This document shows, piece after piece, positions 39,569 through 40,705 of a DNA stretch of 64,000 nt (positions are counted from its first letter, which is position 1; each line of letters begins with the position of its first letter). The stretch spans positions 1,240,001-1,304,000 of the forward strand of contig NZ_CP099966.1 in assembly GCF_025403485.1 (NCBI RefSeq), read 5' to 3'. Made by a program: the position numbers and the translations under genes. The notes beneath the pieces were generated by a model, which saw only the letters and a program-made list of their open reading frames with translations, was not told where the DNA came from and searched no databases. Source of the stretch: Chryseobacterium paludis (GTDB lineage: Bacteria > Bacteroidota > Bacteroidia > Flavobacteriales > Weeksellaceae).

Positions 39569-40705
39569 ATGCAATATTTATTAAAAGACAAAAAAGTAGC
39601 GATCATCGGTGGTGGACCAGTTGGTTTAACAATGGCTAAGTTACTACAACAAAAAGGTGTAGATGTAACCGTTTACGAAAGAGATTATGATGCACAAACA
39701 AGAATTTGGGGTGGTACTCTCGATCTTCATAAAACTTCCGGACAGGAAGCTTTGAAAAAAGCCGGACTCTTGGAAAATTATTATTCTGAAGCAATTCCTA
39801 TGGGAATCATCTTTGCTGATAAGCAAGGTAATGTGTTACACACCCGAAAACCTACACCTGAAAATCAGCATGATAATCCGGAAATAAACAGAAACCATTT
39901 AAGAAAAATATTACTTAACAGCCTAACAGCTAATACCGTAGTTTGGAACAGAAAATTCACAAATCTTGATGTGCAAAACGGAAAATGGCTATTACAATTC
40001 GAAAATCAACCCGATGCTACTGCAGATTTTGTTATCGTAGCTAATGGAGGAATGTCGAAAGTAAGAAGCTATGTAACTGATGCTAAAATCGAAGAAACCG
40101 GAAGCTTTATTATTCAGGGGGATGTACCTACACCTGAACTCAATTGTCCTGAAGCTTATCAGCTTTGTGATGGCAGCAGATTAATGACGGCAGATAATGG
40201 AAGTTTATTCGTTGCTAATCCTTATAATAATGGTGCATTGACCTATGGTTTAATTATTCAGAAACCTGAAGAATGGAACTATGGTCACCCATTAGACTTC
40301 GAGAATAAAGACTCCGTTATCGAGTTCCTTTCAAACAGACTGTCAGATTGGAGTGGGCCCTTCCAACAGGTATTTCAGGCAACTTCATTTTTTGTGGGAT
40401 TACCAACAAGAAAATTGCCATTGGATAAACCCTGGAAAAATGATCGCCCTCTCCCAATAACGCTTATCGGAGATGCAGCACACCTGATGCCGCCGTTTGC
40501 TGGTCAAGGTGTAAATATTGGATTGGTAGATGCCTTAACTTTATCTGAAAACCTTACCGAAGGAAAATTTGAAACTGTTGAAGAAGCCATTAAAGATTAT
40601 GAAAAAAGAATGATGATTTATGCTGCAGATGCTCAACTTGAATCAGCTACGAATGAAATAGAAATGCGCGATCCCGGCTTTTCTTTTTTACAGTTTTTCG
40701 AGTAA
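39569..40705 (+). CDS. tet(X): Tet(X)-like flavin-dependent monooxygenase
   Basis: A 378-residue group A flavoprotein monooxygenase that aligns with Tet(X) tetracycline destructases almost without gaps, offset by 9 residues (from memory). FAD-binding motifs are GGGPVGLTMAKLLQQ (14-28), E37, R108, and GDAAHLMPPFAGQG with D302. Substrate-contact positions of Tet(X) are Q192 (here Q183), R213 (R204), H234 (T225) and M375 (M366): three are kept, H234 is Thr. Tet(X) hydroxylates tetracyclines at C11a. The start is ATG 39569; the longer frame from 39485 overlaps the AraC gene. A resistance phenotype is not shown by sequence. Confidence 0.85.
   Translation: MQYLLKDKKVAIIGGGPVGLTMAKLLQQKGVDVTVYERDYDAQTRIWGGTLDLHKTSGQEALKKAGLLENYYSEAIPMGIIFADKQGNVLHTRKPTPENQHDNPEINRNHLRKILLNSLTANTVVWNRKFTNLDVQNGKWLLQFENQPDATADFVIVANGGMSKVRSYVTDAKIEETGSFIIQGDVPTPELNCPEAYQLCDGSRLMTADNGSLFVANPYNNGALTYGLIIQKPEEWNYGHPLDFENKDSVIEFLSNRLSDWSGPFQQVFQATSFFVGLPTRKLPLDKPWKNDRPLPITLIGDAAHLMPPFAGQGVNIGLVDALTLSENLTEGKFETVEEAIKDYEKRMMIYAADAQLESATNEIEMRDPGFSFLQFFE

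What the first reader, a model, noticed from the sequence alone, without database searches (positions are those of the whole stretch)
39569..40705. Chromosomal Tet(X)-like tetracycline destructase with H234 replaced by Thr
The protein follows Tet(X) nearly residue for residue, with the FAD residues (E37, R108, D302) and three substrate-contact positions (Q183, R204, M366) kept, while the position equivalent to H234 is T225. No mobility genes are nearby, which fits the idea that Flavobacteriales are an ancestral reservoir of tet(X). The substitution may change drug range.
Basis: partly seen in the sequence, partly recalled or inferred. Interest (0 to 1): 0.75.

Follow-up and report, generated by a model that had tools for sequence, protein, structure and literature searches.

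The report
Chromosomal cousin of Tet(X), not Tet(X)
This Chryseobacterium gene encodes a chromosomal flavin monooxygenase that resembles the tetracycline-destroying enzyme Tet(X) but belongs to a separate, often regulator-paired family in which threonine at that pocket position is normal, so it is probably not a tetracycline resistance gene.

Summary
The ORF is real (39569-40705, +, 378 aa) and T225 does sit at the Tet(X) H234 position. The reading of it is wrong in emphasis. The protein is 58-61% identical to 17 Tet(X) rows and scores 555 bits on NCBI's Tet(X) model (cut-off 750). In 106 non-redundant relatives outside Tet(X), query included, position 234 is T (73), S (31), M (1) or A (1), never H; in the 17 Tet(X) rows it is H (16) or Y (1, Tet(X3)). 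So T225 is the normal state of a large resident family. The more telling departure is V215: the matching Phe is reported invariant in functional type 1 destructases. A published relative (Niabella, 63.9% to Tet(X)) gave no resistance in E. coli. Unlike the Tet(X) genes examined, 91 of 104 resident genes have an AraC-type regulator within 300 bp upstream; here it ends 52 bp before the start codon. Best reading: an AraC-controlled class A monooxygenase for another small molecule, fitting the 'clade I' of Zhang et al. 2020. Weak tetracycline turnover is not excluded. The AraC pairing, and Tet(X) nesting inside this family, are the interesting parts.

The parts
39569..40705 (+). class A FAD-dependent monooxygenase, resident Tet(X)-like type, 378 aa
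38683..39516 (+). AraC-family regulator (DUF6597 + HTH_18) ending 52 bp before the monooxygenase start codon, same strand; probable operon partner
   Evidence: Pfam; a relative of it lies upstream on the same strand in 52 of 105 other resident loci, within 160 bp of the open frame in 51
40241..40243 (+). codon of T225 (TetX2 position 234)
40211..40213 (+). codon of V215 (TetX2 position 224; Phe in functional type 1 destructases per PMC10944477)
40253..40255 (+). codon of I229 (TetX2 position 238, Ser in the 17 Tet(X) rows)
40109..40111 (+). codon of I181 (TetX2 position 190, Asn in the 17 Tet(X) rows)
36041..36889 (-). second AraC-family regulator, divergent from the MFS gene; part of a block shared with L042 and L043
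36977..38176 (+). MFS transporter, also upstream in L042, L043 and (cut by the locus end) L059; link to the monooxygenase is inferred from synteny only

Best explanation
A resident chromosomal class A flavin monooxygenase of Bacteroidota, made under control of the AraC-type regulator just upstream. Inferred working: the regulator senses a small molecule and switches on the two-gene unit; NAD(P)H reduces the bound FAD, oxygen gives the C4a-(hydro)peroxyflavin, and this hydroxylates the molecule, probably to detoxify or catabolise it. The pocket is shaped for a ligand other than tetracycline at its A-ring end (I181, V215, T225, Y226, I229 in place of Asn, Phe, His/Tyr, Phe/Leu, Ser), so it is not expected to give tetracycline resistance. 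Shown: sequence and predicted-fold likeness, FAD-motif residues, pocket letters, place on the tree, regulator adjacency. Inferred: operon, induction, substrate, and lack of tetracycline activity.
For: NCBIfam Tet(X) model 555.2 bits against a cut-off of 750. An HMM from 17 Tet(X) rows: Tet(X) 821-879 (two rows tested by leaving each out of the model: 781 and 848), residents 469-668, query 562. Pocket split between groups: 224 F 17/17 against V 101/106; 234 H16 Y1 against T73 S31 M1 A1; 238 S 17/17 against I 94/106; 190 N 17/17 against I 100/106. Tet(X) is one clade (100; 100/100) and the query lies outside it, in a Chryseobacterium clade (99; 100/100). AraC-type regulator within 300 bp upstream in 91 of 104 resident rows with at least 700 bp upstream, 0 of 10 such Tet(X) rows (two of them in one locus; 7 of 17 had too little flank), 10 of 14 such outgroup rows; this genome has 108 HTH_18 matches in 5.05 Mb, so chance adjacency should be rare (inference). 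Published tests: Niabella G47 (63.9% to Tet(X)) gave no MIC rise for tetracycline or tigecycline, nor did full-length tetX1 (PMC7725328, passages); in round 1 of Blake et al. none of the 18 candidates outside types 1 and 2 (40-80% identity) was functional, and Q182, F214, M365 are invariant in type 1 (PMC10944477). Model pLDDT 84.1, pTM 0.85; best PDB matches are Tet(X4), TetX2, Tet(X6), Tet(X7), TM 0.91-0.93.
Against: Ten pocket positions named in the papers are kept (Q192, R213, M215, A225, G236, A320, G321, E367, N371, M375). 25 of 27 positions conserved in functional destructases are kept, and the two lost (D109, E149) are ones where Tet(X7) alanine mutants stayed at or near wild type. In round 2 of Blake et al. 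1 of 10 candidates outside types 1 and 2 was functional (55% to a type 2 enzyme), and both groups warn that E. coli tests can be false negatives. The tested Niabella protein was not itself placed in my tree. AraC adjacency is not universal: 13 of 104 lack it, and the query's 80% relative L123 and several rows near Tet(X) on the careful tree (L156, L136, L181) lack it; L180 has only a weak AraC-type match upstream. It would also suit a drug-inducible resistance gene. The substrate is unknown, so 'not tetracycline' rests on analogy.
Confidence: 0.7

Rival explanations
1. A genuine tetracycline destructase with a shifted drug range.
For: About 60% identity, same predicted fold, FAD residues and ten pocket positions kept, 25 of 27 family-wide positions kept. 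Tet(X3) shows that position 234 need not be His.
Against: V215 where functional type 1 enzymes are reported to have Phe; below NCBI's cut-off; Niabella G47 and tetX1 inactive in E. coli and none of 18 round 1 outside candidates functional; T/S is the norm in a widespread family rather than a drug-driven variant.
Confidence: 0.12
2. A monooxygenase for another compound that oxidises tetracyclines slowly as a side reaction, too weakly to give resistance.
For: Conserved Q183, R204, M206, N217, M366 could still hold the scaffold; Tet(X) appears to have arisen from inside this family, which is easiest if some side activity was already present (inference).
Against: No biochemical test of this clade was seen in the papers read; only resistance tests in E. 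coli.
Confidence: 0.3
3. A former acquired tet(X) gene that has decayed or drifted in this host.
For: Sequence likeness and sporadic presence: 53 of 148 genus genomes hold a resident-type copy (my count of rows, three of these cut short or interrupted).
Against: No frame damage; closest kin are Chryseobacterium orthologues, three of them (L042, L043, L059) with the same AraC and MFS neighbours; Tet(X) is nested inside the family, not the reverse (AU p 0.041).
Confidence: 0.03

Closest known systems
'Clade I' Tet(X) candidates of Zhang et al. 2020 (PMC7494873, section 8 and passages seen)
   Same: 60-64% identity to Tet(X); Chryseobacterium the most common host, with Pedobacter, Niabella, Larkinella; separate from the Tet(X)-Tet(X5) clade
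   Different: Their accession list was not fetched, so membership is inferred from the description; pocket signature and AraC pairing are not reported in the section read
Tet(X)/Tet(X2)/Tet(X4) type 1 tetracycline destructases (NF033111; PDB 3v3n, 7epv)
   Same: predicted fold, length, FAD-contact residues, Q192, R213, M215, G236, M375
   Different: 58-61% identity; V for F224, T for H/Y234, I for S238, I for N190; AraC partner; below the family cut-off
NF20/G47 of Niabella ginsenosidivorans (PMC7725328, passages seen)
   Same: 63.9% to Tet(X), Bacteroidota, no mobile element found by its authors, grouped with Tet(X)
   Different: not directly compared here; tested and inactive in E. coli, whereas the query is untested
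SmTetX (8aq8; PMC13228020, part 1 of 2 of the text read)
   Same: Tet(X)-fold monooxygenase, substituted at H234 (Cys); reported not to degrade tetracyclines
   Different: about 28% identity to Tet(X), Q192 to Glu, much farther from Tet(X) than the query
AbsH3 of abyssomicin biosynthesis (6n04)
   Same: next structural match by E-value after the Tet(X) entries (TM 0.76-0.77)
   Different: 27-28% identity, biosynthetic context

Membership tests
Tet(X), type 1 tetracycline destructase | NCBIfam NF033111 curated cut-off 750 bits | tested here: not met
   555.2 bits
Tet(X), type 1 tetracycline destructase | Score range of known Tet(X) on a Tet(X)-only HMM | tested here: not met
   562 against 821-879 (two left out in turn: 781, 848). 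The published 792 threshold (PMC10944477) belongs to another HMM and was not run
Tet(X), type 1 tetracycline destructase | Substrate residues Q182, F214, M365 (Tet(X7) numbers), invariant in functional type 1 | tested here: not met
   Q183 and M366 kept, F214 is V215
Tet(X), type 1 tetracycline destructase | Positions conserved in all 114 functional destructases (31; 27 are named in the sections read) | tested here: not met
   25 of 27 kept; D109 is H110, E149 is A150
Tet(X), type 1 tetracycline destructase | H234 | tested here: inconclusive
   T225 here, but Tet(X3) has Tyr, so the feature does not define the family
Tet(X), type 1 tetracycline destructase | Falls inside the Tet(X) clade | tested here: not met
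Tet(X), type 1 tetracycline destructase | FAD-contact residues E46, R117, D311 | tested here: met
   E37, R108, D302
Tet(X), type 1 tetracycline destructase | Hydroxylates tetracycline and confers resistance | not testable with these tools
   needs enzyme assay or gene deletion
Type 2 tetracycline destructase (NF033476) | Curated cut-off 550 bits | tested here: not met
   46.7 bits
Clade I resident Tet(X)-like monooxygenases (Zhang 2020) | 60-64% identity to Tet(X), Flavobacteriia/Sphingobacteria hosts, outside the Tet(X) clade | tested here: met
   61.5% by tblastn to Tet(X2)/Tet(X4), Chryseobacterium; their own sequences were not aligned
Class A FAD monooxygenase (PF01494) | Pfam gathering score | tested here: met
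   84.1 bits against 22

The most novel reading that the evidence does not exclude
Tet(X) is a derived, regulator-less offshoot of a widespread, mostly AraC-paired family of Bacteroidota monooxygenases that normally disarm some other natural product; the query is one of the unaltered resident enzymes, so its inducer and substrate would tell what Tet(X)'s forebears did before they met tetracyclines. Some of the nearest relatives of Tet(X) also lack an adjacent AraC gene, so the regulator may have been lost before, not with, mobilisation.
Probability: 0.4. Interest if true: 0.6.

Novelty: new member of a known kind. Interest (0 to 1): 0.35.

Why it matters
Resistance surveys that use loose identity limits will count such genes as tet(X). 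One survey of 215 Chryseobacterium genomes (50% identity and coverage limits) reports 72 'tet(X3)/(X4)/(X6)' genes with median GC 40.8% and 3% near mobile elements, beside 26 'tetX' genes with GC 37.4% and 46% mobile (PMC11194056, passages and section 13; its table rates the 72 as very likely of outside origin). Resident genes of Chryseobacterium here have median GC 40.0% (58 genes) and Tet(X) 37.5% (17 genes), so most of the 72 are probably resident monooxygenases (inference, not checked on their sequences). A pocket signature (V224, T/S234, Y235, I238) helps to separate the two kinds, and an adjacent AraC gene, where present, points to the resident kind.

Tried and rejected
Closer to non-tetracycline monooxygenases? 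Rejected as such: the next PDB relatives (SmTetX, AbsH3) are far more distant than Tet(X).

Long GTG start at 39485: rejected, it overlaps the AraC gene and the aligned part starts at residue 4 of the ATG form.

Tet(X1) as a possible resident-clade member: looked for as the second match on a Bacteroides fragilis plasmid; the record's table shows there a tet(X) annotated in two pieces, which is probably that match, so Tet(X1) could not be placed. It was left alone.

Which organisms hold the sister of Tet(X): unresolved. The quick tree puts a group of five Chryseobacterium rows beside it (SH-aLRT 89), the careful tree groups it with L180, L181, L173 and L187 (93/92, not starred). Residents as one clade without Tet(X): AU p 0.041, a marginal rejection; 0% of 200 bootstrap trees show it, whose bootstrap had not fully settled.

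Literature searches for AraC control of TetX-like enzymes found nothing (TetX, AraC family, flavin monooxygenase, native substrate, at least 3 of 4; 0 papers); the library holds open-licence papers only. A search on mis-annotation and one on H234/F224 mutants gave listings with nothing useful beyond a review already known.

Papers seen only as passages and not used: PMC5722508, PMC9366087.

Rows dropped: two cut-short relatives (L046, L080) were left out of alignments; identical proteins were merged (190 hits to 139 rows, query included). 16 rows under 50% identity to TetX2 served as outgroup. Rows were thinned by identity in both trees (94 and 67 of 139); four long or odd rows were also left out of the careful tree, and its outgroup held to six.

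Corrected on re-checking: the number of window ORFs given to Pfam (48 of 53, all 53 after it), the AraC counts, and what lies upstream of rows near Tet(X).

Full report
Observation. The ORF at 39569-40705 (+) encodes 378 aa. It aligns without gaps over residues 4-376 to TetX2 (3v3n, 529.9 bits). The window lies in a single-contig 5.05 Mb genome of a Chryseobacterium, the protein being 99% identical to that of Chryseobacterium sp. ISL-6. Identity to Tet(X2)/Tet(X4) is 61.5% by tblastn and 58-61% over the alignment for 17 Tet(X) rows.

Is it Tet(X)? NCBIfam's Tet(X) model gives 555.2 bits against a curated 750. An HMM built here from 17 Tet(X) rows separates Tet(X) (821-879; Tet(X3) and the Tet(X6)-type row score 781 and 848 when each is left out of the model) from 106 relatives (469-668) with the query at 562. 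Blake et al. 2024 (PMC10944477; sections 6, 7, 11, 12, 14 and 16 read) report that substrate residues Q182, F214 and M365 are invariant in functional type 1 enzymes; the query keeps Q183 and M366 but has V215 for F214. Of the 27 family-wide conserved positions named in the sections read, 25 are kept; D109 and E149 are not, and alanine at those two left Tet(X7) at or near wild type. So flavin chemistry is expected to be intact while the substrate pocket is not that of Tet(X).

Relatives were collected from the genus (123 of 148 genomes with a match at 1e-40; by my count of its rows 54 hold a match of 58% or more and 69 only a more distant one; one of the 54, G018, is a protein identical to the Tet(X6)-type reference), family (81 of 296 at 1e-110, true Tet(X) included), order (21 of 346 at 1e-120), phylum (5 of 395 at 1e-110), and the families of Pedobacter terrae (24 of 251 at 1e-120) and Taibaiella (11 of 195 at 1e-120), plus named contigs (14 loci). 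These samples overlap, and not every match was fetched. After merging identical proteins and dropping two short ones, 139 rows remained: 17 Tet(X), 106 resident (query included), 16 outgroup. Position 234 is T 73, S 31, M 1, A 1 in residents and H 16, Y 1 in Tet(X), the Y being Tet(X3). Among the 61 ingroup rows of the careful tree the T/S against H/Y difference needs one change (M and A not counted). So Thr or Ser is the normal state of this family and His or Tyr is special to Tet(X). Other differences fixed or nearly so in or near the pocket are 190 N/I, 193 A/G, 224 F/V, 235 F/Y and 238 S/I. Contacts of Q192, R213, H234 and S238 with the drug are from PMC13228020 (part 1 of 2 of the text), PMC8666040 (one passage) and PMC5988894 (passages). 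PMC13228020 writes Gln190 for Tet(X4), where the letters here read Asn.

Evolution. Two trees agree that Tet(X) is one fully supported clade on a long stem (0.35 and 0.37 changes per column) inside the resident family; residents as one clade appear in 0% of 200 bootstrap trees and the AU test gives p 0.041, which is marginal. The sister of Tet(X) is not settled. The query groups with three and two Chryseobacterium rows in the two trees (99; 100/100) and is not the sister. L180 is flanked by an IS3-like transposase pair (Pfam rve and HTH_Tnp_1; the IS name is recalled).

Neighbourhood. An AraC-type regulator (DUF6597 + HTH_18) lies on the same strand with 52 bp between its stop and the monooxygenase start. 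A relative of this regulator lies upstream on the same strand in 52 of 105 other resident loci, within 160 bp of the open frame in 51, and a different, divergent AraC-type gene in 37 of the other 53. By a regulator HMM, 91 of 104 resident rows with at least 700 bp upstream have one within 300 bp, against 0 of 10 such Tet(X) rows (two in one locus) and 10 of 14 such outgroup rows. That HMM was built from regulators found in resident loci, so the 91 is partly by construction and the Tet(X) and outgroup counts may be low for unlike regulators. The genome has 108 HTH_18 matches, so one by chance beside a given gene should be uncommon. Results against: the query's 80% relative L123 has no AraC gene upstream and a different gene order, and of the rows near Tet(X) on the careful tree L156, L136 and L181 have none, while L180 has a weak AraC-type match (HTH_18 33.3 bits against 33.6; DUF6597 32.3 against 27). 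26 of 105 loci have a Glyoxalase_7 gene upstream on the same strand and a DUF763 gene downstream; no such pair was seen among the query's scanned neighbours, which instead include a divergent AraC/MFS block shared with L042 and L043. Downstream, an arsenic-type operon follows that is not seen at the same place in those two relatives. None of the 53 window ORFs of at least 150 aa matched a mobility family.

Function. Published tests bear on the kind: Berglund et al. 2020 (PMC7725328, passages) found no MIC rise for Niabella G47, 63.9% to Tet(X), nor for full-length tetX1; Blake et al. found none of 18 round 1 candidates outside types 1 and 2 functional, and 1 of 10 in round 2, a type 2 relative, with the caveat of E. 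coli expression. Zhang et al. 2020 (PMC7494873, section 8) had already drawn a 'clade I' of 28 such proteins, 60-64% identical to Tet(X), Chryseobacterium being the most common. The query fits that description; the accession list was not compared. The predicted structure (pLDDT 84.1, pTM 0.85; lower at 41-50, 161-170 and 301-320) matches Tet(X4), TetX2, Tet(X6) and Tet(X7) best (TM 0.91-0.93), then AbsH3 and SmTetX. The model cannot settle substrate choice.

Verdict. Observation confirmed; interpretation partly supported. The gene is most likely an AraC-controlled resident monooxygenase with another substrate; it is a new member of a known kind. What deserves follow-up is the common AraC pairing in the family and its absence beside the Tet(X) genes examined.

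Noticed in passing
window 40823-43392: Arsenic-type operon directly downstream: ArsR (HTH_5), DUF6428, a protein without Pfam match that looks like an arsenate reductase (recalled), and an SBF-family transporter; GC 33.6%; not seen at this place in L042 or L043.
   Followed up: partly
window 23005-28061: HTH_3 repressor-like gene divergent from a Y-family polymerase gene (IMS) and a DNA polymerase III alpha gene: looks like an SOS mutagenesis cassette (the name is recalled).
   Followed up: no
window 374-1786 and 60891-62354: Two GntR-aminotransferase fusion regulators (MocR type, name recalled), one near each end of the window.
   Followed up: no
own genome G000:C1:2348378-2349481 (L010): A 40% paralogue, of a kind common in the genus sample, also has an AraC-like gene 4 bp upstream of its open frame.
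   Followed up: partly
26 of 105 resident loci, e.g. L129: Conserved cluster Glyoxalase_7 - AraC(DUF6597) - monooxygenase - DUF763.
   Followed up: partly
L180 (G1267) 513-3886: The closest non-Tet(X) relative of Tet(X2) found (71-72%) has an IS3-like transposase pair just downstream and a weak AraC-type gene upstream.
   Followed up: partly
L087 (G018): A Chryseobacterium genome with a protein identical to the plasmid-borne Tet(X6)-type reference L112.
   Followed up: no
L190 29704-31880: Bacteroides fragilis plasmid NZ_CP054002.1 carries a second tet(X) annotated in two pieces near a short ErmF match; described only.
   Followed up: no
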